Of a DNA stretch of 43,371 nt, positions 5,650 to 37,296 are shown piece by piece. The stretch's first letter is position 1. The number at the start of each line of letters is the position of its first letter. Source of the DNA: Eggerthellaceae bacterium (lineage in GTDB: Bacteria > Actinomycetota > Coriobacteriia > Coriobacteriales > Eggerthellaceae); contig JAFUCC010000015.1 of assembly GCA_017459925.1 (NCBI GenBank), positions 1-43,371 of the forward strand, in the 5' to 3' direction. The position numbers and the translations under genes were made by a program. The notes beneath the pieces were generated by a model that saw only the letters and a list, made by a program, of their open reading frames with translations, did no database searches and was not told where the DNA came from.

Positions 5650-5664
5650 ATCCCAACCTTTTCT

Positions 5665-5750
5665 GATGAGTAGCGGGACGTTCCTCCTACTCATTTTCCT
5701 GAAAATGAGTAGGAGGAACGTCCTGCTACTCATCATCCTGCTACTCATCC
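5665..5750. repeat. Palindromic element A1
   Basis: Arms of 34 bases (5665-5698 and 5701-5734) with one G:U-type mismatch and a two-base loop, followed by an extra partial copy CCTGCTACTCATCC. Each arm alone is also a hairpin (ATGAGTAGC.GGA / TCCT..TACTCAT). It lies directly upstream of the binding-protein gene. Other copies: 8512-8610, 9612-9730, 18126-18236, 37220-37287. Confidence 0.85.
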
Positions 5751-8165: not shown

Positions 8166-8516
8166 TTGGCTCCCAAAAGCGGACGCGAATCCGCTATCGA
8201 ACAGGACCATGTGAACGCATCAGCCGCACTTGACGCTCTCGTGGCCAACATCAAATCGAACGTCAATCTAGATGGCGCGCTCCACCCCGCCCTCGACAAG
8301 CTGGCGGAATACGACCGTGCGAACTCATCCGATTTCCTGCTCACCTTGAAGGTGTATCTGGAAAACGACTGCAACGCGCAGAAGTGCGGCAGGATTCTGT
8401 TCCTGCACCGCAATTCGCTCGTGTACCGCATCCGCCGCATTCAGGAAATCGCCGGCTGCGACCTGTCCGATCCGGCCGAGCGCGCCTACCTGCGCCTGTC
8501 GCTGCTGCTGCGATGA
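8166..8516 (+). CDS. Small PucR-type helix-turn-helix protein
   Basis: 116 residues from a TTG start with GGGAGGG seven bases upstream. The C-terminal 75 residues (HPALDKLAEYD ... FLHRNSLVYRIRRIQEIAGCDL ... YLRLSLLLR) match the PucR C-terminal HTH domain that normally ends regulators of 400-550 residues. Here the usual sensory part is replaced by about 45 unremarkable residues. It could be a stand-alone DNA-binding protein or the surviving tail of a larger regulator. It is divergent from the riboswitch cluster. Its TGA lies inside the left arm of repeat A2. Confidence 0.7.
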   Translation: MAPKSGRESAIEQDHVNASAALDALVANIKSNVNLDGALHPALDKLAEYDRANSSDFLLTLKVYLENDCNAQKCGRILFLHRNSLVYRIRRIQEIAGCDLSDPAERAYLRLSLLLR

Positions 8517-8610
8517 GTAAGAGGACTGTCCTGCGACTCATTTTTCGTCGCGTTAACCTAGGCCGGACGTGTATCTGAAAATGAGTCACAGGACAGTCCT
8601 CATACTCATC
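8512..8610. repeat. Palindromic element A2
   Basis: Inverted arms of about 34 bases at 8512-8545 and 8577-8610 flank a core that includes TCGCGTTAACCTAG. The same core, with few changes, sits inside element A3. A2 and A3 share GGACTGTCCTGCGACTCAT and form a subfamily distinct from A1, A4 and A5 (GGACGTTCCTGCTACTCAT). The left arm supplies the stop codon of the HTH gene. Confidence 0.85.
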
Positions 8611-8640
8611 GCGCCCCTACGAATCAACCCGCAATAAGAA

Positions 8641-9476: not shown

Positions 9477-9611
9477 GTGAAACCTCCTTGATCGTTGCCA
9501 ACTTCTTGCATCTTACAAAGACATCTTTAAACCTACGAAGATTTCTTTTCAAAACTGTTAAACAATCCAGCGAACGGCCTTCACCGCGCTTTTGCGGTAG
9601 AAAGTCCCATC

Positions 9612-9758
9612 AAATGAGTAAGAGGACTGTCCTGCGACTCATTTTTTCCTGCGACTCATTTTTTCATCGCGTTAACCTAGCTCGGACGCGCATCTGAAAT
9701 TGAGTCGCAGGACAGTCCTCTTACTCATTTGGAGCACCCGGGCCGGCGCGCCGTTCCA
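9612..9758. repeat. Composite of palindromic element A3 and a single arm of family C (C2)
   Basis: A3 has arms at 9612-9646 and 9697-9730, an extra CCTGCGACTCATTTTTTC copy after the left arm, and the TCGCGTTAACCTAG core shared with A2. It runs straight into C2 (9731-9758), a degenerate single arm of the C family (compare 2114-2147). C2 abuts the NUDIX stop codon just as C1 abuts the ATPase stop. The rest of the gap (9477-9611) holds the SDR ribosome-binding site, an AT-rich stretch likely to contain its promoter, and a small hairpin ACCGC/GCGGT at 9585-9600. Confidence 0.8.
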
Positions 9759-11968: not shown

Positions 11969-12832
11969 TTACGCGGCCTTCTTATGATAGGCGACCCAGT
12001 ACACGAGCCCCACCATGATGGCGCCGCCGACGATGTTGCCGAGCGTTGCCAAGCCGATGTTGTAGCAGGCGCCTCCCACGTTGACGGCCTGCGTAATGGC
12101 GTCGAGCTTGGCGGCGTCGATGTCGCCGACGTATCCGTACGTGTTAAGCGCGGCGATGCCCATAGGCAGGAAGAACATGTTGGCCACGCAGTGCTCGAAG
12201 CCGCAGGCGACGAACGCCATGACCGGGAAGATCGACGTGAACACCTTGTCGATGACCGTACGGCCGGCAAAGCCCATCCACACCGCCAGGCACACGAGCC
12301 AGTTGCACATGATGCCGCGGAAGAAGATGACCTGAGGTGCCAGCGAGATCTTCGAATACGCCACGTTGATCATAGCGTTGCCCACCGCCCCGCCGTTCAT
12401 GCCGGCGAAGTTACCGCCGATGAGCAGCGCGACGATGATGAGCGAACCCACCAAGTTACCGATGTAGACGATGACCCAGTTCTTGATCATCGCGCCCCAG
12501 CTGATCTTGTTGCTGGCAGCAGCGCAGACCATCAGGCAGTTGCCGGTGAACAGCTCGGCGCCGGCCACGATGACGCACAAAAGGCCCAGCGCGAAGCACA
12601 GGCCGCCGAGCACCTGCGACGCTGCGAACGGCAATGTGGTGTCGCCCTTCACGAGTAGCATGAACGTCGCGCCCGTGGCGATCATCATGCCGGCCATGAT
12701 GGACAATGCGAATGCCGGGGCGATGTCGAGCTTGGTTTTCCCAATCGCAACGTTCTGCGCCTGGGTGAACAGCGCCGCAGCGCCCCGGCAATCGGGCTTC
12801 GCGGCGGCCACCTCTTTCTTCAGTTCTTCCAT
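11969..12832 (-). CDS. focA: Formate/nitrite transporter FocA-type channel
   Basis: 287 residues, six predicted membrane helices. Both FNT signatures are present: AGAELFTGNCL and FEHCVANMFFLPMGI. FNT channels move formate, nitrite, hydrosulfide or lactate as monovalent anions or acids. Its place directly after hydA and downstream of the Fhs-FchA-FolD genes makes formate by far the most likely substrate, importing it for Fhs or exporting it after CO2 reduction. Palindrome B1 lies between hydA and this gene. Confidence 0.9.
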   Translation of the reverse strand: MEELKKEVAAAKPDCRGAAALFTQAQNVAIGKTKLDIAPAFALSIMAGMMIATGATFMLLVKGDTTLPFAASQVLGGLCFALGLLCVIVAGAELFTGNCLMVCAAASNKISWGAMIKNWVIVYIGNLVGSLIIVALLIGGNFAGMNGGAVGNAMINVAYSKISLAPQVIFFRGIMCNWLVCLAVWMGFAGRTVIDKVFTSIFPVMAFVACGFEHCVANMFFLPMGIAALNTYGYVGDIDAAKLDAITQAVNVGGACYNIGLATLGNIVGGAIMVGLVYWVAYHKKAA

Positions 12833-12851: not shown

Positions 12852-12878
12852 AATCAATTACCTCGGAGGAAATTGATT
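12852..12878. repeat. Palindromic element B1
   Basis: AATCAATT(A)CCTCGGAGG(A)AATTGATT, a near-perfect palindrome of the B family. It falls between the hydA stop and the focA start; the right half adjoins hydA's end. Confidence 0.75.
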
Positions 12879-12885
12879 CTCTTTC

Positions 12886-14604
12886 TTAGATATCCCACGT
12901 CTCCTGAGCGGTGTGCAGCCACTCGTGTGACGTGTGACCCAAAGGTTCGCCGAGGACGTCGGCGTACAGCTTCTGGATGTCCGGGTTCTCGTGCGAATAG
13001 CGCAGCGTGTCGGCCGCGTCGAGCGCGTTCAGGTTGGCGGCGCGCACCTGCGCGAGCTCCTGGTTGAACGCGATGGGCTGGCCACCGCCGCCGACGCAAC
13101 CGCCCGGGCAGGCCATGATCTCGACGAAGTCGAGGTCGACCTCCCCCGCCTCGATGGCGTCGAGCAGCTTGGCCGTGTTGCCGAGGCCGCTTGCCACGGC
13201 GATGCGCACGGGCGTGCCGGCGACGTTGAGCTCCTTCGTGACCCAGGGCTTCTCGGGCGTCGAAGCCGTCGTGTCGCATGCCGAGAAGTCGGGGTTCTCG
13301 CCCGTGATCAGGAACACGGCCGAACGCAGCGCGGCCTCCATGACGCCGCCCGTGCGTCCGAAGATCGTGCCCGCTCCCGTGGAAAGGCCCAGCGGGTTGT
13401 CGAACTCGGTTTCCTCGAGCTTCGCACAGTCGACGCGGAACATCTTCAGCATGCGGTCGAACTCGCGCACGGTCAGCACGGCGTCGACGTCGCGACCGGC
13501 ATCAGTCGAAAGCTGCGGCACGTCGCATTCGTACTTCTTGGCCACGCACGGCATGATCGACACGACGAACACGCGCTTGCCGTCTTCGTCGGCTGCGGCC
13601 TTCATCGTGTTCTTCACCACGGCGCCCATCATCTGATGCGGCGACTTGGCGGACGAAAGCTGGCCCACGAACTGCGGGTAGTGCAGCTTCGCGAAACGCA
13701 CCCAACCCGGGCAGCAGCTCGTGAACATCGGGCGCTTCTTCTCGGAGGACATGAACTGCACGAACTCGCTGCCCTCTTCCATGATGGTGAGGTCGGCCGC
13801 GAAGTCGGTGTCGAAAACCTTGTCAAAGCCGAGGGCGCGCAAAGCGGCCGCCATGCGGCTGGGCGTCGCCTCCTCGCGGGCAAGGCCGAGCGGCTCGCCC
13901 CAAGCGGCGCGCACGGCGGGAGCCACCTGCACGACCGTGATGACATTGGGGTCGGCCAGCGCGTCCATGACCTTGGGAATGTCGCGGCGCGCGGTCAGGG
14001 CGCCCGTCGGGCAGTGCGTGATGCACTGGCCGCAAAGCGCGCAGCCGGCTGTGTCGATGTTCAAGCCGTCCTTCACGGTGACCTTCATGTGCGGTCCGCT
14101 TCCCGTGAAGTCCCACACGGCGCAGTGCTGCACCTTCTCGCATTCGGCCACGCAGCGCATGCACTTGATGCACTTGCTGGAATCGCGCACGAGCGGGAAC
14201 TCCTCGTCCCAAACGCCTTTGGGCGGCTCGGCGTCGAACGGCAGCGTCTGGATGCCGAAATCGGCGGTCAGGTGGCGCAGCGCGCAGGTTTCCGAACGCG
14301 CGCAGGTCGTGCACTCGCTGCGGTGCTCGGAAAGGATCATCTGCAGGTTGGTCTGGCGGGCGCGCACCACGGCGGGCGTGTTCGTGCGGACGGACATGCC
14401 CTCGCGCACCGGCGTGTTGCATGCGGCGGCCATGCGCTCCTCGCCTTCGACCTCGACGACGCACACGCGGCACGCGCCGATGTCGTTGATCTTCTTCATC
14501 CAGCACAGCGTCGGGATGTCCACACCAGCGGCTTTCGCAGCGCCGAGGATGGTCATGCCCTCGCGGGCCTCGACAGTACGGCCGTCTATCGTCAGCGCTA
14601 CCAT
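12886..14604 (-). CDS. hydA: [FeFe] hydrogenase catalytic subunit HydA
   Basis: 572 residues from MVALTIDGRTVEA; a longer frame inside the upstream gene is rejected. Domains in order: [2Fe-2S] (Cys34, 45, 48, 62), His-Cys3 [4Fe-4S] (His94, Cys98, 101, 107), two ferredoxin [4Fe-4S] (Cys145/148/151/155 and 188/191/194/198), then the H-cluster domain with TSCCPGW (295-301, including the proton-relay Cys298), MPCVAKKYE (351-359) and MACPGGCVGGGGQP (497-510). All cluster ligands are intact. It interconverts H2 with protons and electrons in the cytoplasm. Its ATG overlaps the upstream electron-transfer gene by seven bases, so the two products very likely form one complex. HydEFG maturases are not in the window. 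Confidence 0.95.
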   Translation of the reverse strand: MVALTIDGRTVEAREGMTILGAAKAAGVDIPTLCWMKKINDIGACRVCVVEVEGEERMAAACNTPVREGMSVRTNTPAVVRARQTNLQMILSEHRSECTTCARSETCALRHLTADFGIQTLPFDAEPPKGVWDEEFPLVRDSSKCIKCMRCVAECEKVQHCAVWDFTGSGPHMKVTVKDGLNIDTAGCALCGQCITHCPTGALTARRDIPKVMDALADPNVITVVQVAPAVRAAWGEPLGLAREEATPSRMAAALRALGFDKVFDTDFAADLTIMEEGSEFVQFMSSEKKRPMFTSCCPGWVRFAKLHYPQFVGQLSSAKSPHQMMGAVVKNTMKAAADEDGKRVFVVSIMPCVAKKYECDVPQLSTDAGRDVDAVLTVREFDRMLKMFRVDCAKLEETEFDNPLGLSTGAGTIFGRTGGVMEAALRSAVFLITGENPDFSACDTTASTPEKPWVTKELNVAGTPVRIAVASGLGNTAKLLDAIEAGEVDLDFVEIMACPGGCVGGGGQPIAFNQELAQVRAANLNALDAADTLRYSHENPDIQKLYADVLGEPLGHTSHEWLHTAQETWDI

Positions 14605-16424
14605 TTGTCGGGCCTCCCTCCACGCAGCGGGCCCATGCCGAAGTGATCGCACCTCAGGCAACGACCGCATTCCTGTGCAGCCTCCTCATCGCGCAGCGGG
14701 ATCTCCACGCCGTCGAAATCGGCTCCGCGTTCGTCGGCCGGACGTTCATGAATGTTCACACGGCCGCACGCCAGCTTGCTGTCGAACACCGACCGCGGAA
14801 TGTGCACGTCGTCGAAGACGTCGTGGCCGTATCCCAGATAGGCGTCGATGTTGGCGGCCACGGCCTTGCCGGCGGCGATGGCGCGGATGACCGTGGACGG
14901 GCCCGTTTGGCAGTCGCCGCCCACGAACACGTTGTCGAAGCCCTTCGCCAGGCCATGCCCGTCGGACACGAAACGGCCGCGGTTCTGCTCGAGGCCCTTC
15001 TCGGCGAAATACTCGTATTCGATGACCTGGCCGATGGCCTCGACCAGGATGTCGCATTCGAAGACCTGCTCGCCGGCCTCGGTTGCTTTGGGCGCGGGAC
15101 GTCCGCCGCGGTAGAAGCTCGGCATCTGCGGCTGGCCCACGAAGGCGATCTCGTGATCGGTGCCCTTGTCGATGCGGACCGGGCTCATGAGCTCAACCAT
15201 CTCGCAGCCTTCGGCGATGGCGGCTTCCACTTCCTCGGGAAGGGCCGTCATGTCCTCGATGCGACGACGGTAGATGCAGCGCACGCTCGCAGCACCCAGG
15301 CGCTTGGCCGTGCGCGTGGCGTCCATGGCGACGTTGCCGCCGCCCACGACCACGACGTCCTTGCCGGCGACGTCGTCGGGACGGCCGTCAGCCACGCGGT
15401 GCAGGAACTGCACGGCGCTCATGACGCCTTCGCGCGTGGCGTACTCTATACCCAGATCCTTGAAATGGTGCGCGCCGATGGCAACATACACGGCATCGTA
15501 GCCCTCGACGAGCTCTTCCCACTGCACGCCGACGCCGACCTTCACGCCCAGCTTCACATCGATGCCGAGCGAGAGTATCGCGTCGATGTCGTACTGCAGG
15601 TTCTCTTCGGGCAGGCGGTAGCGCGGGATGCCGTAGTACATCATGCCGCCCAGATGCGCGTTCTGCTCGTACACGGTGATGTCGTGGCCCATGAGCGCCA
15701 GGTAGTACGCGGCGGTGAGGCCCGACGGGCCGCCGCCGATGATGGCAACCTTCTTGCCGGTCGCCGGCGCCTTCTCGGGCGCGTCAACCGCGCCGGCGGT
15801 GAGCACCGCATGCTGCTTCATGCCGCGGATGTTCACGGGCGCGTCGATCATGCCGCGACGGCATGTATGCTCGCAGGGATGCTCGCACACGAACGCGCAG
15901 GCGCTCGGGAACGGGTTGTCGTTGCGGATGACGCGCACGGCGTCGGCCGGGCGACCGTCGCGCAGGCACGCGATGTAGCCGGGGATGTCCACGTGGCTCG
16001 GGCATTCCTTCACGCACGGCACCGCGGTGAACGGCTGCGTGCACACGCCCTTGGCCAGGTGGCTTTCGGCGTCTTCCTTGATGAGGTCGGCGAAAGCCAA
16101 ACCCACGCGACCCGCTTGGAAGCCTATGGCGCAGTCAGCCGACTTGTACAGCGTGTCGCAAACCATGATGACCTGGTCGACGATGCCCTCGACATGCTCG
16201 CCGCGAAGAATCGACTCCAAGCCGTCGGCCAGACGCGCCAGGCCGATGCGACACGGCGTGCACTTGCCGCAGCTCTGCGAAGCGCAGAGCTTAAAGAAGC
16301 CCACGGCGGTTTCGAGCGGGCACGTGGAATTGCCATACACCGACACGCGGTTGATGACCGCGTCGGCGATGACGCGCGCTTGCTCATCGGCCTTCGTGGG
16401 TGCGAAAACAGGTAACCTGCTCAC
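14598..16424 (-). CDS. NuoF-stub/GltD-type flavoprotein, electron-transfer partner of HydA
   Basis: 608 residues from a GTG start (AAAGGGGAACC upstream). Residues about 25-120 match only the C-terminal [4Fe-4S] domain of NuoF/HydB (SCGKCTPCRIG, Cys52/55/58, fourth ligand Cys98). The FMN/NADH-binding core of NuoF is absent. From about 125 the protein is GltD/NfnB-like: Cys-rich segment (VPCVKECPSHVDIPGY; CAFVCEHPCEHTC), FAD loop GGGPSGLTAAYY, NAD(P) loop VVVVGGGNVAMDATR, and a C-terminal ECGRCLRCDHFG. It should oxidise or reduce NAD(P)H at FAD and pass electrons through its clusters to HydA. NADPH versus NADH cannot be decided by eye. Upstream is an inverted repeat GCCCGCAT/ATGCGGGC (16446-16467). 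Confidence 0.85.
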   Translation of the reverse strand: MSRLPVFAPTKADEQARVIADAVINRVSVYGNSTCPLETAVGFFKLCASQSCGKCTPCRIGLARLADGLESILRGEHVEGIVDQVIMVCDTLYKSADCAIGFQAGRVGLAFADLIKEDAESHLAKGVCTQPFTAVPCVKECPSHVDIPGYIACLRDGRPADAVRVIRNDNPFPSACAFVCEHPCEHTCRRGMIDAPVNIRGMKQHAVLTAGAVDAPEKAPATGKKVAIIGGGPSGLTAAYYLALMGHDITVYEQNAHLGGMMYYGIPRYRLPEENLQYDIDAILSLGIDVKLGVKVGVGVQWEELVEGYDAVYVAIGAHHFKDLGIEYATREGVMSAVQFLHRVADGRPDDVAGKDVVVVGGGNVAMDATRTAKRLGAASVRCIYRRRIEDMTALPEEVEAAIAEGCEMVELMSPVRIDKGTDHEIAFVGQPQMPSFYRGGRPAPKATEAGEQVFECDILVEAIGQVIEYEYFAEKGLEQNRGRFVSDGHGLAKGFDNVFVGGDCQTGPSTVIRAIAAGKAVAANIDAYLGYGHDVFDDVHIPRSVFDSKLACGRVNIHERPADERGADFDGVEIPLRDEEAAQECGRCLRCDHFGMGPLRGGRPDKW

Positions 16425-16474: not shown

Positions 16475-16566
16475 CAATCAATTTCCTCCGAGGAAATTGA
16501 TTGCCTTGCACTATCCTTGGCTTTTGTATGGCTTTCGCAATCAATTACCTCGGAGGTAATTGATTG
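16475..16566. repeat. Paired palindromic element B2/B3
   Basis: Two perfect 29-base palindromes (16475-16503 and 16538-16566) share CAATCAATT.CCT at their ends and differ only at the centre. They are 34 bases apart, forming a two-hairpin unit. The unit fills the 160-base gap between folE and the HydA-partner gene. Confidence 0.85.
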
Positions 16567-16584: not shown

Positions 16585-17166
16585 CTACTTGAACAGCGAC
16601 AGCGCCTCGGCCCTGGTCTTCTCGTCTTCTTGGAAAGAGCCGCGCACGGCGCTGGTGATGGTTAGCGAGCCCGGCTTCTTGATGCCGCGCGCCGTCATGC
16701 AGCTGTGCTCGGCCTCGACCACGACGAGCGTGCCGAGCGGCTCGAGCGACTTCATGATGGCATCGGCAATCTGCGAGGTCATGCGCTCCTGCACCTGCGG
16801 ACGGCGGGCGTAGCCTTCCACGCAGCGGGCGATCTTGGACAAGCCGGTGATGCGCCCCTTGCGCGGGATGTAGGCGACGTGGGCCTTCCCCACGAACGGC
16901 AGCAGGTGATGCTCGCACATCGACGTGAACGGGATGTCGCGGACGATGACCATTTCCTCGTGATCTTCCTCGTGGAATTGCTTCAGCAGATGCTCGGCAG
17001 GATCTTCCTGCAACCCAGCAAACACCTCGGCGCACGCGCGGGCCACGCGCGAAGGCGTGTCGAGCAGGCCCTCGCGGTCGGGGTCTTCGCCGATGGCATA
17101 CAGGAATTCGCGGATCGCCGCCTCGGCGCGCGGTTGATCGAGTTTGCCATACGTGGATTCAGCCAT
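16585..17166 (-). CDS. folE: GTP cyclohydrolase I
   Basis: 193 residues, strong GGGGGG ribosome site. Contains the zinc and active-site pattern CEHHLLPF (Cys84, His87) and [12 protein letters not shown] (Cys156), plus [17 protein letters not shown] and [10 protein letters not shown], typical of FolE type IA. It makes dihydroneopterin triphosphate from GTP, the first step of (tetrahydro)folate synthesis. Placement among tetrahydrofolate C1 genes suggests co-control of cofactor supply and use. A GC-rich hairpin at 17215-17243 separates it from folD. Confidence 0.95.
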
Positions 17167-17253: not shown

Positions 17254-18108
17254 CTACGCCAGCGTACGCTCAGCAGCCTGCACGATATGCGACGCGAGCA
17301 CTGCCGTCGTGACGCTTCCCACGCCGCCGGGAACAGGCGTGATGGCGTCGACGATGGGCTCGGCAGCGTCGAAGTCGACGTCGCCGCAAAGCTTACTCGC
17401 CTCTTCGTCCCAGTTGATGCCCACGTCGATGACGACCTGGCCCTTGCGCACCGCGTCGGCGCCCACCGTGCGCGCACGGCCCACGGCCACGACCAGCACG
17501 TCGGCCTCGGCGCACTTGGCGGCGAGCTCCCTGGTGCGCGTATGGCACATGGTGACGGTAGCGTTGGCAGCCTGCAGCATCATGGAGACGGGCTTGCCGA
17601 TGACGAGCGAGCGGCCCAGAACGGTGACGTTCGCGCCGGTCAGCTCGTAGCCGTAATGCTTCAAAACCTGCATGCAGGCGTCGGCCGTGCACGGCGGGAA
17701 GCCCACCGGCTGGTTGGCGAACACGCCGTACAGCGAGCCCTGCGTGATGCCGTCGGCGTCTTTCGCCGGGTCGAGGGCGGCGCAGGCCGCGACCTCGTCG
17801 AGGTGCTTGGGCAGCGGGCGGAACATGAGGCAGCCGTGAATCGCCGGGTCGGTGTTGACCTCGTTGATGGCGGCCATGAGCTCTTCTTGGGTGCACTCGG
17901 CGTCGAGCACGAACTTCTTTAGGCCCAGGCCCAGCGTCTCGCAGCGCTTCGTGGCGCCGCGCTCGTACGACAGGTCGTCGTCGCGCTCGCCCACGCGGAT
18001 GATGGCCAGCGTCGGCGTGACGCCCGCAGCCTTGCAAGCCTCGATACGCGGAGCCAGCTCTTCGTTGATGGCGTCGGCAACCGGCTTGCCCTTCAAGATT
18101 TCTGCCAT
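17254..18108 (-). CDS. folD: Methylene-tetrahydrofolate dehydrogenase FolD, probably lacking cyclohydrolase activity
   Basis: 284 residues, ribosome site GAAAGGA. FolD hallmarks: GCLMFRPLPKHLDE, FPPCTADACMQVL, the Rossmann segment GRSLVIGKPVSMML and PGGVGSVTTAVLASHIV. In bifunctional FolD the pattern is Y-x-x-x-K, with the Lys (K54 of E. coli, K56 of the human enzyme) essential for cyclohydrolase. Here it reads YERGA, so the position is Ala52, with a Lys two residues later. A separate cyclohydrolase, fchA, lies next door. I infer a dehydrogenase-only enzyme oxidising or reducing methylene/methenyl-THF. Confidence 0.92.
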   Translation of the reverse strand: MAEILKGKPVADAINEELAPRIEACKAAGVTPTLAIIRVGERDDDLSYERGATKRCETLGLGLKKFVLDAECTQEELMAAINEVNTDPAIHGCLMFRPLPKHLDEVAACAALDPAKDADGITQGSLYGVFANQPVGFPPCTADACMQVLKHYGYELTGANVTVLGRSLVIGKPVSMMLQAANATVTMCHTRTRELAAKCAEADVLVVAVGRARTVGADAVRKGQVVIDVGINWDEEASKLCGDVDFDAAEPIVDAITPVPGGVGSVTTAVLASHIVQAAERTLA

Positions 18109-18125
18109 AAAACGGTCCTTTCCGA

Positions 18126-18236
18126 GATGAGTAGCAGGACGTTCCTGCTACTCATTTTGTAGAACGGTTTCCACACATTAAAGAGATACTGCAAATGAGT
18201 AGCAGGAACGTCCTGCTACTCATCCTGCTACTCATC
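18126..18236. repeat. Palindromic element A4
   Basis: Arms at 18126-18159 and 18192-18224 with a 32-base spacer, then a partial extra copy CTGCTACTCATC running up to the fchA stop codon. It fills nearly the whole gap between fchA and folD. Confidence 0.85.
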
Positions 18237-18860
18237 TTACGCGCGGATGCCGGCGGCGACTTCGTCGGCCACGGCCTTGGCGCGGGGGACGTATGCGAGC
18301 AGCTCGTCAGCCTCGGCCTCGACCTTGGCGGCGTACTCGCGGTCCTTCAGGCCCTTGGTGTTGATGAACACGTTCATGGAAGCGGCGCGCATAGCGGCAG
18401 CGGCGCACACGGCACCGCAGCCCACGTCGCTGATCAGCATGCGCGAGCCCTTCACGTTCATCTCCTCGAGCAGCTCGATCGCCTTGGCGATCTGGCGCAT
18501 CATCTCGAGCGGGCCGGCCAGCGCGTCCTTGGTGCACTTTTCCAGCACCTCGTCGCGCGTCGAATCCTCTTTGGGGATGCCGTAAGCCTGGGACAGCGGG
18601 TAGAACGCGGCGGCGTCCTCCTCGACGAGCTCGAGCAGACGGGCGCGGACTTGCTCGCCTTCGGCCAGCATGCGCTGCACGTCTTCCTCGTACTCGGCGT
18701 ACTTCTTCTTGCCGGTGGTGAAATTGCCCACCATCGAGCACAGGGCCACGCCCAAAGCGCCCACGTAGGCGGCTGCTCCGCCGCCACCCGGCACGCTGAC
18801 CTTGCCGGCCAGCTCGGCTGCGAACTCGGTACAGCTCTTGTCCATCATCTTGTCAGTCAT
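18237..18860 (-). CDS. fchA: Methenyltetrahydrofolate cyclohydrolase FchA (cyclodeaminase family)
   Basis: 207 residues, ribosome site AAGGAG. All-alpha FTCD_C/FchA family: SVPGGGGAAAYVGALGVALCSMVGNFTTGKKKY near the start and SDVGCGAVCAAAAMRAASMNVFINTK in the second half. It hydrolyses methenyl-THF to formyl-THF or runs the reverse. Neighbours fhs and folD catalyse the steps on either side. The FolD here lacks its cyclohydrolase lysine, which makes FchA the necessary enzyme for this step. Confidence 0.93.
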   Translation of the reverse strand: MTDKMMDKSCTEFAAELAGKVSVPGGGGAAAYVGALGVALCSMVGNFTTGKKKYAEYEEDVQRMLAEGEQVRARLLELVEEDAAAFYPLSQAYGIPKEDSTRDEVLEKCTKDALAGPLEMMRQIAKAIELLEEMNVKGSRMLISDVGCGAVCAAAAMRAASMNVFINTKGLKDREYAAKVEAEADELLAYVPRAKAVADEVAAGIRA

Positions 18861-18921: not shown

Positions 18922-20589
18922 TTAGAAAAGACCCACGATCTTGCCGTCAGCGGTGACGTCGATCTTCTCGGCAGCCGGGACCTTCGGGAGCCCTGGCATG
19001 GTCATGATCTCGCCGGTCAGCGCCACGATGAAGCCAGCGCCAGCGGAGATCTTGAGGTTGCGCACGGTGATGCGGAAGTCCTTCGGGGCGCCCAGCTTGG
19101 TCTGGTCGTCGGTGAAGGAGTACTGCGTCTTGGCAACGCAAATGGGCAGCTTGTCGAAGCCGTTGGCCACGAGCTGGTCGAGCTGCTTCTTGGCCTTCGG
19201 GGTGAAGTCGACGCCGTCGGCGTGGTAGATCTTCGTGGCGATGGCGTTGAGCTTCTCCTCGATCGTCTGGTCGACTTCGTAGCTGAACTTGAAGTCGTTG
19301 GGCTGGTCGCAGACGCGCACGACTTCCTCGGCGAGCGCCGTGGCGCCCTCGCCGCCCTTGGCCCAATGCTCGGCGAGCACGGCATTGACGCCGAGCTCCT
19401 TGCACTTGGCCTGGACGAGCTCGAGCTCGGCCTGGGTGTCGGTCGGGAACGCGTTGATGGCGACGACCGCGGGAAGGCCGAAGACGTTCTGGATGTTGGA
19501 GACGTGCTGCAGCAGGTTCGGCAGGCCAGCCTCGAGGGCCTCGAGGTTCTCGTTGTTCAGGTCGGCCTTGGCAACGCCGCCATTGTGCTTGAGGGCGCGG
19601 ACCGTGGCGACGATGACGACGCAGGACGGCTGGATGCCCGCATAGCGGCACTTGATGTCGAGGAACTTCTCGGCACCCAGGTCAGCGCCGAAGCCGGCCT
19701 CGGTGACGACGTAGTCGGCCATCTTCAGGGCCGTCGTGGTGGCCTGGACGGAGTTGCAGCCATGGGCGATGTTGGCGAAGGGGCCGCCATGCACGAACGC
19801 CGGGTTGTTCTCGAGCGTCTGGACCAGGTTCGGCTTGATGGCGTCCTTCAGCAGGGCGGCGCAAGCGCCCTCGGCCTTGATGTCGGCCACGGTGACGGGC
19901 TTGCCGGAACGGCTGTAGGCGACGACCATGCGGCCGAGGCGGGCCTTCAGGTCGTCAAGGTCGGTGGCCAGGCAGAACACGGCCATGACCTCGGAGGCGA
20001 CGGTGATGTCGAAGCCGTCTTCGCGGGCCACGCCGTCACCGGCGGTGCCGAGGCCGTCGACCACGTTGCGCAGCTGGCGGTCGTTCATGTCGACGCAGCG
20101 GCGCCAAATGATGTTGTTCAGGTCGATGTCGAGCTCGTTGCCCTGCTTGATGTGGTTGTCGAGCATGGCGGCGATGAGGTTGTTCGCAGCGCCGATGGCG
20201 TGGAAGTCGCCGGTGAAGTGCAGGTTGATGTCCTCCATGGGGACGACCTGGGCGTAACCGCCGCCAGCCGCGCCGCCCTTCACGCCGAACACGGGGCCCA
20301 GCGACGGCTCGCGCAGCGCGAGCATCGAGGACTTGCCAATCTTGCACAGCGCGTCATGCAGGCCCACCGACGTGGTGGTCTTGCCCTCGCCGGCCGGCGT
20401 GGGGTTAATGGCGGTAACCAGGATGAGCTTGCCCTTCATGGGCTTATCCTTGTAGGAGTGGATGTCGACCTTGGCCTTGTAGTGACCATAGGGCTCGCAC
20501 GTAGCCCAGTCGATGCCGGCCTTCTCCGCTACCTCTTTGATCGGCAGCATCGTCGCTTCCTGTGCGATCTCGATGTCGGACTTCGCCAT
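18922..20589 (-). CDS. fhs: Formate-tetrahydrofolate ligase
   Basis: 555 residues, the usual size, with ribosome site AAAGGAGG. P-loop-like ATP site [20 protein letters not shown] at about 62-81; also [20 protein letters not shown] and [20 protein letters not shown], all diagnostic of Fhs. It joins formate to THF with ATP, the entry step of the Wood-Ljungdahl methyl branch, and can run in reverse to make ATP. It is flanked by metF-V and fchA in the same direction. Confidence 0.96.
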
Positions 20590-20832: not shown

Positions 20833-22464
20833 TTACGGCAGCTTCGTGTCGACCTTCTTCAGCAGGTCGGTTTCCGGGATGATGCCGCCCGGCGCACCGG
20901 TTTCCAGGCCCAGCGACACGGGGATGCGGCCCTCGCAGTTGTCGCGGTGATGCGTGTAGGCGCTCCACGGGCTGGAGCTGTACAGCTCCCAGTGGTTCGG
21001 CGGGGTGATGTAGCTGGTGATGCGCTCCATCTCGTCGGACTTCTTCGCCTTGTGGTAAGCCTTGTACCAGATGCAGTAACGGCTGCCATCCGGGAAGACC
21101 TCGCAGTAGCCGTCGAAGGTGCCGCCGCACGGCCCGTTGCGCTGGCATTTGGGGCATTGCGTCATCGGGCACGTGTACAGCGTGGCTTCCAGACCGCAGT
21201 CGCCGCAGTCCATGCAGCCGTACATCATCGACTTGCCAGTATGCTCGAGGCCGTGGTGGCGGTACACGCCCTTCTTGTTGTCGAGCGAGTTCATGCGGCT
21301 GGCGAGGATCTTGTTGCCGCGCTTGCCGAGGGTGAGCACCCAGTGGTGCGCGAAGCGGGAGATGCCCCACTTGCTGAAGACCTTGCGCGAGCGCGCCTGC
21401 TCGGGCTTCGGGCTCTTAGCAGGCGTGTTCAGGCCGGTGAGGTTGCCCTCTTCGTCCTTCTCAGGCTGGTAGATGTAGTAGCCGTCCTTCTTGCCGAAGC
21501 TGACCTTCTTCACGCATTCGCGCCATGTCGGAGCCAGTTCCTCGGCGCGGTCGAGGATGCCGCAGAGCATCTCGGCCGTGACGCCGAAGCCGCCGATGTG
21601 CACGCCGGCGTAACCGAGGCCCTTGGCGATGGCGACCATCTGGGCGGCGCGCTCGATGCGGGCGCCCTTGCCCTTGTCCTCGGCCTTCGATTCCTCTTCA
21701 AGCTGGGCGAGCAGCTCGTCGCTGACGTAGCAGCCGGCGATGGTGCCCTTCTTCATGAGCTTGGCCGCGCCCTTGGTGATCAGGAAGATGTTAGCGATGA
21801 TGGGCGTGTCGTAGCCGCGCTCGTCGCGGTAGCGGATGAGCTCTTCCATCTTCCGCGCGTCGTAGCCGAGCTGCGTGATGAGGAACCTCGCGCCGCCGAT
21901 GATCTTCTTTTCCATCTTCAGGTACTGCGGGATGACCTCGCCTTCAAGGTACTTGAAGGGGTTCACGACGCCGCCGTTGTAGAAGTGCGTCTGCTTTTCG
22001 ATGACCGGACCCTTGCGTCCGGGGACTTCCAGGCCGTTGTTCATCTCGGTGGCGAGCATCTGCAGGTGCACCGAGTCGAGGTCGAAGACCGGGCGTGCGC
22101 GGCCGTCCCAGCCGGTGCCCTGGTAGTCGCCCGTCATGAACAGGAGGTTCTCGATGCCGGCGCGCTCCATGCTGTAGAGCTGCGAGATGATCTGGTTGCG
22201 CGAGCGGTCCTTGCACGTGAAGTGCACGAGCGGCACGATGCCCTCGCTGACGAACTCCTCGCCGAGGCGGTCGGCCAAAAGCGCCGGGTTGCCGCTCGGA
22301 TTGTCCGTGATGGACATCGCGTGAACGCGCCCCGTCGCATAGATTTTCTTGGCTTCTTCGATTTCCTTTTCCTGAGCTTCCTCGTGCGCGCCGCGCCCGG
22401 GAATGATTTCGCAGGTTACGACGAACTCGCCTCTCTCGAGCGCGTCCTTGAATCGATTCTCCAC
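20833..22464 (-). CDS. metF: Methylene-tetrahydrofolate reductase, MetF-MetV fusion
   Basis: 543 residues from a GTG start at 22464 with AAAGGGG seven bases upstream; an ATG 17 codons earlier has no ribosome site. Residues about 1-300 are the MetF TIM barrel (FVVTCEIIPGRGA, MSITDNPSGNPA, ENLLFMTGDYQGTG, GARFLITQLGYD, ANIFLITKGAAKLM). The C-terminal part carries a cysteine cluster (GCMDCGDCGLEATLYTCP, then QCPKCQRNGPCGG) typical of the zinc-binding MetV subunit, which acetogens usually encode as a separate gene. It reduces methylene-THF to methyl-THF, the methyl donor for corrinoid proteins. An operator-like dyad lies about 120 bases upstream. Confidence 0.92.
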   Translation of the reverse strand: MENRFKDALERGEFVVTCEIIPGRGAHEEAQEKEIEEAKKIYATGRVHAMSITDNPSGNPALLADRLGEEFVSEGIVPLVHFTCKDRSRNQIISQLYSMERAGIENLLFMTGDYQGTGWDGRARPVFDLDSVHLQMLATEMNNGLEVPGRKGPVIEKQTHFYNGGVVNPFKYLEGEVIPQYLKMEKKIIGGARFLITQLGYDARKMEELIRYRDERGYDTPIIANIFLITKGAAKLMKKGTIAGCYVSDELLAQLEEESKAEDKGKGARIERAAQMVAIAKGLGYAGVHIGGFGVTAEMLCGILDRAEELAPTWRECVKKVSFGKKDGYYIYQPEKDEEGNLTGLNTPAKSPKPEQARSRKVFSKWGISRFAHHWVLTLGKRGNKILASRMNSLDNKKGVYRHHGLEHTGKSMMYGCMDCGDCGLEATLYTCPMTQCPKCQRNGPCGGTFDGYCEVFPDGSRYCIWYKAYHKAKKSDEMERITSYITPPNHWELYSSSPWSAYTHHRDNCEGRIPVSLGLETGAPGGIIPETDLLKKVDTKLP

Positions 22465-22585
22465 CAGATCACCCCTTTCAATATGCTGATGATATACACG
22501 AATCTTATCCTGCATTATCTAACGAAAGAATAGGGTTTTTCTCACAGTTGGTCATTCAATGCTTTGCACAAACCGCACAAGAAGC

Positions 22586-24230: not shown

Positions 24231-25787
24231 GTGGACATTTCGCAGATGCGCATGATGCTCGTGCTTGCCGAGTGCAAGTCGATGACCACCACTGCGAAGA
24301 AGCTGCACGTGACGCAACCCGCCCTCACCTACCAGCTGAAGGCCATTGAAAGCGAGTTGGGCTTCAAGGTGTTCAACCGCACGCGCACCGGCACGTCGCT
24401 GACCGCCGAGGGCGCGTTTCTGCACGAGACCATCAAGGGCATCGTGGCGGAATACGACGAGACCGTGCGCCTGGCGCGCGCCATGGCCAAGGGCGGTGCG
24501 GCCGGCACCATCCGCGTGGGCGTGAACAACTGCTCGCGAGACAGCATCTCGTTCTTGCTGAGCATGGCGCAGGCGACCGCGCAGTTCTCGCTGATTCCCA
24601 TCGGCTCGTCCGACCCGATTCGCCTGCTACGCGAAGGGGTCATCGATTTCTGGTCGACCTCCGAAGCGTCGATGGTCGATGCACCGCAGTCGCTGCGGTT
24701 CGCCGAGCTCAGCATGTCGGGGCAATCGGCGTTCGTGCCGAAAGACCATCGCCTCGCACGCAAGGTGGCGATAAAGCTTGACGACTTGGAAGGCGAGACC
24801 GTGTGGCTCTGGCCCCGTGGCACCACGTCGCTCGCGTCCGACCAGATTCGCGACCAGCTCGAGGAAACGGGCGCCGACATCGCGGACCTCATCTTCGGCG
24901 TTCCCGCGCTCGTCGCCGCGTTCATGGACGACGACGTGGTGGTCTACGACGACGGCTTCCTGCCGCCTTCATCTCAAGCGGCCATAAAGGTGCCGATAAT
25001 CGACGCGCCCCGCGACACGCTGGGGCTCGTGTACCTCGCCTCGCAACAGGAACGCCTCGCGCCCATCATCGACAAGCTGAAGAGCCGCACGCCCCATGGC
25101 AGGGGACGCACGGTCACCCAGTCGGAAATCGCGGCTGAGCGCATCGTGTCGGTGCTCGACGAGATCAGCGCCACGGTGCGGCGCGGCGGCATGAAGGACA
25201 TCGTGCCGCTCGTCGAATACGGCCTAGAGCTCGGCATCTCCGCGCACCATCTGTTGAACCGCGGCTTGCTGACGGGCATGAACGACATGGGCGACTTGTA
25301 TCGGGATGGCGAGGTCTTCATGGCGGACATGATGGCCTCCATCTCGACCACCAACCTGGCCATGGACGTGCTGCAACCGTATATCGCCATCGAGGACCAG
25401 CACCCGGTTTCGGGGTCGGCTGCCATCGGCACCGTCATCGGCGACGCGCACGACATCGGCAAGAACCTCGTGCGCATCATGCTGGAAAGCCGCGACATCA
25501 ACGTGACCGACCTGGGAACCGAGGTCGCTCCCGAGGCGTTCGTAGAACACGTGAAGAACAACCCGGACTGCAACCTCATCCTCATCTCGGTGAACCAATC
25601 CGAGCTGCTGGACGAGGGACGCAAAGTCGTGGAAGCGCTGAAGAAGGCGAAACTGCGCGACCAGCTGTTCATCATGGTCGGCGGCGCGGCAGCCGACGAG
25701 TCGTTCGCGGGCATCATCGGCGCGGATGCCTTCACGAGCAGCGCCGAAGACGCCGCCGAGACAGCGTACGAGTTCTTGAGCTTATAA
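24231..25787 (+). CDS. LysR-type regulator fused to a corrinoid-binding (MtaC/MetH-like) protein
   Basis: 518 residues from GTG, with AAGGAGGTGA upstream. Residues 1-60 are a LysR winged HTH (MRMMLVLAECKSMTTTAKKL, TQPALTYQLKAIESELGFKV). Residues 88-285 resemble a LysR effector domain (GTIRVGVNNCSRDS ... SAFVPKDHRLA). After a basic linker, 300-385 matches the helical cap of corrinoid proteins (LLNRGLLTGMNDMGDLYRDG, EVFMADMM). Residues 396-518 form the Rossmann B12 domain with GDAHDIG (Asp405-x-His407-x-x-Gly410; His407 would be the lower cobalt ligand), LISVNQS and MVGGAA. All modules appear intact in one frame. I infer a regulator that senses corrinoid or its methylation state; targets are unknown, but C1 genes are nearby. 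Confidence 0.9.
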   Translation: MDISQMRMMLVLAECKSMTTTAKKLHVTQPALTYQLKAIESELGFKVFNRTRTGTSLTAEGAFLHETIKGIVAEYDETVRLARAMAKGGAAGTIRVGVNNCSRDSISFLLSMAQATAQFSLIPIGSSDPIRLLREGVIDFWSTSEASMVDAPQSLRFAELSMSGQSAFVPKDHRLARKVAIKLDDLEGETVWLWPRGTTSLASDQIRDQLEETGADIADLIFGVPALVAAFMDDDVVVYDDGFLPPSSQAAIKVPIIDAPRDTLGLVYLASQQERLAPIIDKLKSRTPHGRGRTVTQSEIAAERIVSVLDEISATVRRGGMKDIVPLVEYGLELGISAHHLLNRGLLTGMNDMGDLYRDGEVFMADMMASISTTNLAMDVLQPYIAIEDQHPVSGSAAIGTVIGDAHDIGKNLVRIMLESRDINVTDLGTEVAPEAFVEHVKNNPDCNLILISVNQSELLDEGRKVVEALKKAKLRDQLFIMVGGAAADESFAGIIGADAFTSSAEDAAETAYEFLSL

Positions 25788-37192: not shown

Positions 37193-37219
37193 GGCCTCAC
37201 CTCCCCTTTCGACATCCTG

Positions 37220-37287
37220 GATGAGTAGCAGGACGTTCCTGATACTCATTTCGGGAAATGAGTATCAGGAACGTCCTGCTACTCATC
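37220..37287. repeat. Palindromic element A5
   Basis: Perfect 33-base arms (37220-37252, 37255-37287) with a two-base loop, the cleanest copy of the family. It lies between the two ABC exporter genes and is the source of a false MSIRNVLLLI extension on the downstream one. Confidence 0.9.
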
Positions 37288-37296
37288 TTCATCCCC

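What the first reader, a model, noticed from the sequence alone, without database searches (positions are those of the whole stretch)
12886..16424. [FeFe] hydrogenase paired with a GltD-like flavoprotein carrying only the iron-sulfur tail of NuoF
Known bifurcating hydrogenases use HydABC with a full NuoF (FMN) subunit. Here the partner has the NuoF [4Fe-4S] domain fused to a GltD/NfnB-type FAD-NAD(P) module, and no NuoE or FMN domain. This implies FAD-based NAD(P)H coupling, either simple or bifurcating in the way of NfnB.
Basis: partly seen in the sequence, partly recalled or inferred. Interest (0 to 1): 0.62.

Follow-up and report, generated by a model that had tools for sequence, protein, structure and literature searches.

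The report
NADPH-linked hydrogenase pair, maturases not found
A gut bacterium carries a hydrogen enzyme wired to an NADPH-handling partner that relatives also plug into formate dehydrogenase; the pair belongs to a known but untested class, and oddly this bacterium and its close kin seem to lack the genes known to build the hydrogen-splitting metal centre.

Summary
A 572-aa [FeFe] hydrogenase (12886-14604, -) overlaps the stop codon of a 608-aa partner made of the NuoF [4Fe-4S] tail, a GltD/NfnB Fe-S domain and a FAD/NAD(P) module, with no FMN domain. It is an ordinary member of a widespread gut and rumen family matching HydDB group A2, whose role is unresolved.

Best reading: a non-bifurcating NADP(H):H2 oxidoreductase. 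The FAD-proximal cluster position is lysine in 57/57 relatives, as in non-bifurcating StnC, not the glutamate of bifurcating NfnB. The same module precedes formate dehydrogenases, and in Ellagibacter an FDH-type partner now stands before a HydA related to this one (AU p = 2e-5). The architecture is that described for Moorella NADP-dependent FdhB.

'No NuoE' is wrong for the genus: sister genomes have NuoE/NuoF, but in an aldehyde ferredoxin oxidoreductase cluster, and other hosts of this hydrogenase lack NuoE altogether.

Unexpected: HydF is absent from 8/8 window-clade genomes and HydG from 4/4 tested, although HydA keeps every H-cluster motif and shows purifying selection. All are draft or metagenome-derived genomes, so systematic assembly loss is not excluded.

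The parts
12886..14604 (-). hydA: [FeFe] hydrogenase, group A, 572 aa, NuoG-like N-terminus (2Fe-2S, His-ligated 4Fe-4S, 2x 4Fe-4S) plus H-cluster domain
14598..16424 (-). Partner (HydB-like): NuoF Fe-S tail + GltD-type Fe-S domain + FAD/NAD(P) module, 608 aa, GTG start
16059..16301 (-). NuoF-type [4Fe-4S] domain of the partner (PF10589; C52, C55, C58, C98)
15804..16025 (-). GltD/DPD-type Fe-S domain (PF14691) with the StnC-like lysine K203 at 15816-15818 just downstream ligand position
14868..15755 (-). FAD/NAD(P) Rossmann module (PF07992), YRR motif, R270
14649..14660 (-). C-terminal RCLRC cysteines (C589, C592), invariant; align with the RCLxC cluster motif of StnC/NfnB
16585..17166 (-). 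folE, GTP cyclohydrolase I
   Evidence: adjacency to hydB conserved in sisters
17254..18108 (-). folD, methylene-THF dehydrogenase/cyclohydrolase
18237..18860 (-). fchA, methenyl-THF cyclohydrolase
18922..20589 (-). fhs, formate-THF ligase
20833..22515 (-). metF-type methylene-THF reductase with C-terminal PF12225 domain
11969..12832 (-). focA-type formate channel

Best explanation
The two proteins form an NADP(H)-linked, non-bifurcating [FeFe] hydrogenase (HydDB group A2 type). NADPH binds the second Rossmann fold and passes a hydride to FAD. Electrons leave one at a time through the Lys-ligated proximal cluster, the second GltD-type cluster and the NuoF-tail [4Fe-4S] cluster into the NuoG-like N-terminal clusters of HydA and on to the H-cluster, reversibly. 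The partner is a general NADP(H) entry module that evolution has plugged into either HydA or formate dehydrogenase. In this clade the operon ties it to the formate/methyl-THF branch, whose FolD step is usually NADP-dependent, so it probably exchanges H2 for NADPH there. Shown here: gene architecture, conserved cluster ligands, linkage to FDH or HydA, the partner swap, operon synteny, absence of ACS. Inferred: complex formation, electron path, NADP preference, non-bifurcation, physiological role and direction. Open: how the H-cluster is made, since the known maturases were not found in this clade.
For: Architecture. The partner model matches Nfn-ABC/StnC (VIA Z 46 and 45, about 440 residues at about 2 A) better than bifurcating NfnI (Z 37). 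K203 in 57/57 aligns with StnC K170, not NfnB Glu. R387 of the GltD-type YRR motif 57/57. Every partner with readable flank is followed by HydA or a NuoG-FDH fusion, ten of the FDHs with a Sec codon. Ellagibacter and L086 partners nest in the FDH-linked clade while their HydA is sister to the window-clade HydA; holding those partners with the window clade is rejected, p-AU 2.2e-5. The same domain set is described for Moorella NADP-dependent FdhB (PMC5736913). Synteny metF-fhs-fchA-folD-folE-hydB-hydA-focA in sisters; no ACS and no PF03063 match in own genome.
Against: No biochemistry for any group A2 enzyme turned up in the papers searched. NADP preference rests on homology. R270, which corresponds to the arginine important in NfnB, is conserved here as in StnC, so it does not discriminate. 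HydF (8/8 genomes) and HydG (4/4) were not found in the window clade, which casts doubt on an active H-cluster here.
Confidence: 0.6

Rival explanations
1. HydA in this clade does not carry the diiron subcluster and is not a hydrogenase. The pair works as an NADPH-dependent electron donor, for example to ferredoxin or to an unknown acceptor.
For: HydF above cut-off absent from 8/8 window-clade genomes while Slackia, Ellagibacter and the L086 genome score 493-539 bits. HydG absent in four of four tested clade genomes, as is the weaker HydE-like cross-hit that appears in all four HydG-positive genomes. Published hydA without maturases, judged inactive or of other role: heliobacteria (PMC9147875), Rhodospirillum rubrum (PMC4967309).
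Against: L1-L3 motifs and neighbouring residues are intact in 8/8 clade members; 3 of 118 otherwise invariant sites are broken, no more than in comparison clades (5/120, 4/119, 6/121); pN/pS 0.12-0.21, the same range as the partner.
Confidence: 0.22
2. An NfnB-like bifurcating hydrogenase: the partner's FAD bifurcates, coupling H2 or NADPH to ferredoxin.
For: Fold and FAD/NADP sites homologous to NfnB; R270 conserved.
Against: No NfnA-like second flavin subunit, no HydC/NuoE, no C-terminal ferredoxin domain on the partner; lysine not glutamate at the proximal cluster; in StnC the same arrangement does not bifurcate by itself.
Confidence: 0.1
3. HydA works in a HydABC complex with the genome's separate NuoE/NuoF pair, and the GltD-type protein is a side player.
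For: Sister genomes have NuoE and a full NuoF with C-terminal Fer4.
Against: That pair sits with an aldehyde ferredoxin oxidoreductase and its own short NuoG-like subunit. Slackia exigua, C. sporosphaeroides and Succiniclasticum carry HydA and the GltD-type partner without any NuoE. The overlap of partner stop and hydA start is conserved.
Confidence: 0.03
4. HydDB's proposal for A2: a hydrogenase making reductant for glutamate synthase.
For: The GltD-like partner gave the group its name.
Against: Neighbours are folate one-carbon genes and a formate channel; the GltD resemblance is shared with many unrelated redox modules.
Confidence: 0.03

Closest known systems
HydDB [FeFe] hydrogenase group A2 ('glutamate synthase-linked', role undetermined; PMC5037454)
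   Same: Group A HydA encoded next to a GltD-type protein without a full NuoF
   Different: Partner gene is upstream of hydA and carries a NuoF Fe-S tail; linked to one-carbon genes, not to glutamate synthase
Moorella thermoacetica NADP-dependent formate dehydrogenase, FdhB subunit (PMC5736913)
   Same: Described domain set: 4Fe-4S, ferredoxin-type and NADP-binding
   Different: Catalytic subunit is an FDH; the FdhB sequence itself was not compared here
StnC and NfnA of StnABC/NfnABC (PDB 8oh5, 9bov, 9n5u)
   Same: GltD-like NADPH module, lysine at the proximal cluster, RCLxC after the Rossmann domains, joined to NuoG-type clusters
   Different: StnC is one fused chain feeding a separate FMN bifurcating module (StnAB); none is encoded here
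NfnB (NfnL) of the bifurcating NfnAB transhydrogenase (PDB 4ylf, 5jca)
   Same: FAD/NADP fold and Fe-S domain
   Different: NfnB has glutamate at the proximal cluster and an NfnA partner
HydABC bifurcating hydrogenase (group A3; PDB 8a6t, 7q4v)
   Same: Closest solved HydA sequences, aligned over the full length
   Different: HydB (FMN) and HydC (NuoE) are replaced by the GltD-type subunit

Membership tests
[FeFe] hydrogenase group A | TIGR02512 over cut-off, L1-L3 motifs | tested here: met
   443 bits against cut-off 406; motifs
HydDB group A2 | Adjacent protein with a GltD/GltA-type domain | tested here: met
   NF009410, NF009454 and TIGR01316 hits; it is upstream, whereas the HydDB rule reads the downstream gene
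HydDB group A2 | No NuoF domain in that protein | tested here: inconclusive
   Only the NuoF Fe-S tail; weak TIGR01959 hit, 34 bits against cut-off 559. The HydDB server itself was not run
HydDB group A3 / HydABC | NuoF (FMN) and NuoE subunits encoded with HydA | tested here: not met
   No PF01512 or PF01257 in the partner; none in the operon
NfnAB bifurcating transhydrogenase | NfnA subunit and glutamate at the proximal cluster | tested here: not met
   No such gene beside it; lysine in 57/57
[FeFe] hydrogenase with the standard maturation system | HydE, HydF and HydG in the genome | tested here: not met
   HydF 0 of 8 clade genomes, HydG 0 of 4; all draft or metagenome-derived; HydE tested only through cross-hits
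NADP-specific GltD-type module | NADPH rather than NADH as substrate | not testable with these tools
   YRR motif kept; needs an assay

The most novel reading that the evidence does not exclude
The clade makes a catalytically active H-cluster without HydE, HydF and HydG, by an unknown maturation route, in an NADPH-linked hydrogenase embedded in the formate/methyl-THF operon.
Probability: 0.15. Interest if true: 0.85.

Novelty: new member of a known kind. Interest (0 to 1): 0.5.

Why it matters
Group A2 hydrogenases are found and expressed in the rumen but described as functionally unresolved (PMC6776011). The lysine signature, the FDH/HydA exchange and the Ellagibacter swap turn 'role unknown' into a concrete testable claim: an exchangeable, non-bifurcating NADP(H) module. 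The missing maturases make this clade a sharp bacterial test of whether an [FeFe] enzyme can be built without HydEFG or has taken on another job.

Tried and rejected
NuoE absent from the genome: rejected as evidence, since NuoF lies at a contig end and sister genomes have NuoE. Acetogenesis: no ACS and no PF03063 match in own genome, so the folate operon is not part of a full Wood-Ljungdahl pathway there; PF03063 matches in some sisters were not sorted between hybrid-cluster protein and CODH. R270 as a bifurcation marker: conserved in NfnB, StnC and here alike, so not diagnostic. The palindromes flanking hydBA as operators: 79 places genome-wide, so more likely a repeat element. Searches for an earlier biochemical study of A2 enzymes found none; PMC7311640 and PMC6288185 do not mention GltD. 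Moorella FdhB itself was not fetched; only its published description was used. The 2Fe-2S regular expression returned nothing because my pattern was too narrow; the domain is found by PF13510.

Full report
Observation. On the minus strand the window holds a 608-aa protein (14598-16424) directly followed by an [FeFe] hydrogenase (12886-14604 after correcting the start). Pfam resolves the partner into the NuoF [4Fe-4S] domain (residues 42-122), the GltD/DPD Fe-S domain (134-207) and the FAD/NAD(P) module (224-519), with no FMN or NuoE-type domain. HydA has the expected cluster motifs. The ATG of hydA overlaps the partner's stop by seven or eight bases, here and in the relatives checked, which speaks for coupled translation.

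How common is it. A scan of one genome per species for 84,980 species returned 108 relatives, of which the 80 best were fetched. They come from rumen and gut Eggerthellaceae, Slackia, Clostridia, Selenomonadales and a few others. Wherever the flank is long enough, the partner is followed at once by a protein whose first 200 residues resemble the NuoG-like part of HydA: a full HydA in about 55 loci, or a formate dehydrogenase alpha subunit in 22. In ten loci the FDH frame stops at TGA inside ARV-U-H(A/S)P(T/S)VAGL, the selenocysteine site. So the partner is a reusable electron-entry subunit.

Module exchange. In a tree of 83 rows the FDH-linked partners form one clade (SH-aLRT 99), but the partners of Ellagibacter isourolithinifaciens (L083) and of L086, which stand before a HydA, lie inside it (100). 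Their HydA, in contrast, is sister to the window-clade HydA (100). Forcing these two partners to join the window clade is rejected (p-AU 2.2e-5; the group was named after seeing the tree, so this p is somewhat optimistic). One lineage of hydrogenase has therefore exchanged its partner with the formate-dehydrogenase type.

Chemistry from sequence. AlphaFold2 with a 57-sequence alignment gave pLDDT 84.5, pTM 0.80. The best solved relatives are the NADPH modules of Nfn-ABC and StnC (Z 46 and 45), ahead of bifurcating NfnI (Z 37). In StnC the FAD-proximal cluster is ligated by K170, the FAD is described as non-bifurcating, and NfnB has glutamate at this place (PMC10482914). The window residue in that column is K203 (aligned to lysine in StnC and NfnABC, to glutamate in both NfnB-type structures shown), and it is lysine in 57 of 57 relatives, FDH-linked ones included. 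Together with the absence of any second electron branch this favours a linear path. The GltD-type NADP motif is kept (R387 57/57; R386 53/57); four FDH-linked rows have FTR instead of YRR, a possible cofactor switch there. Moorella's NADP-dependent FdhB is described with the same three domains (PMC5736913).

Is there a NuoE elsewhere. None is found in the own assembly, but a NuoF is truncated at the end of contig C77. Five sister genomes have NuoE beside that NuoF; in the sister genome read closely it lies in a cluster with an aldehyde ferredoxin oxidoreductase, a HydN-like ferredoxin and a short NuoG-like protein: probably a bifurcating tungstoenzyme of the Wor type (that name from general knowledge). 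Slackia exigua, Clostridium sporosphaeroides and Succiniclasticum have the GltD-type partner and HydA but no NuoE, so HydA does not need it.

Setting. In most sisters the order metF-fhs-fchA-folD-folE-hydB-hydA-(ABC substrate-binding protein)-focA is conserved as far as the contigs reach; L016 differs. The own genome has no acetyl-CoA synthase and no CODH-type match. The hydrogenase is thus tied to formate/methyl-THF interconversion rather than to acetogenesis. FolD is usually NADP-linked (general knowledge), which fits an NADP(H) hydrogenase. The direction cannot be told.

The unexpected part. HydG has no match in the own genome and three sisters, without even a weak candidate, while Slackia, C. 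sporosphaeroides, Succiniclasticum and Ellagibacter have it, each with a weaker HydE-like cross-hit as well, close to HydG in three of them. HydF is missing from all eight window-clade genomes (best 74-88 bits, read as ordinary GTPases) and present in Slackia, Ellagibacter and the L086 genome (493-539 bits). Yet HydA is not decaying: motifs intact in 8/8, 3 of 118 otherwise invariant sites broken against 4 to 6 in comparison clades, pN/pS 0.12-0.21. All eight genomes are draft or metagenome-derived (own: 94.8% complete, 8.4% contaminated), so chance loss in all is unlikely but a systematic binning loss is not excluded. hydA without maturases is on record in heliobacteria (PMC9147875), Rhodospirillum rubrum and Entamoeba (PMC4967309), where activity is doubted or unresolved.

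Verdict. A real, well-conserved, known kind of enzyme (group A2) whose function was open; the evidence favours a non-bifurcating NADP(H)-linked hydrogenase with a swappable entry module. The lack of detectable maturases in this clade is the part that deserves a second look.

Noticed in passing
window 12853-12877, 16477-16501, 16540-16564: A 25-bp palindrome ATCAATTNCCTCNGAGGNAATTGAT flanks hydBA; 79 places in the genome with up to 2 mismatches, several of them in close pairs. Looks like a REP/REPIN-type repeat.
   Followed up: partly
window 5660-5742, 8507-8618, 9608-9737, 18121-18232, 37215-37295: A second palindrome family, ATGAGTAGCAGGA..TCCTGCTACTCAT, in pairs mostly between genes.
   Followed up: no
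window 24231-25787 (+): One ORF joins a LysR HTH and LysR substrate domain to two B12-binding domains, near the metF operon: possible cobalamin-sensing LysR-type regulator.
   Followed up: no
L104 5562-12179 (-): HydN-like ferredoxin, aldehyde ferredoxin oxidoreductase, NuoE, NuoF, short NuoG-like protein, ThiF: likely bifurcating tungstoenzyme cluster in the sister genome.
   Followed up: partly
L012, L013, L014, L016, L018, L022, L025, L026, L028, L109: An ABC substrate-binding protein (MqnA/NMT1-like) recurs beside this hydrogenase in Coriobacteriia and Clostridia; not seen there in the window or L011.
   Followed up: no
L077, L078, L087, L088 (partner residues 385-387 in window numbering): These FDH-linked partners have FTR in place of the YRR NADP motif: possible NADH preference.
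   Followed up: no
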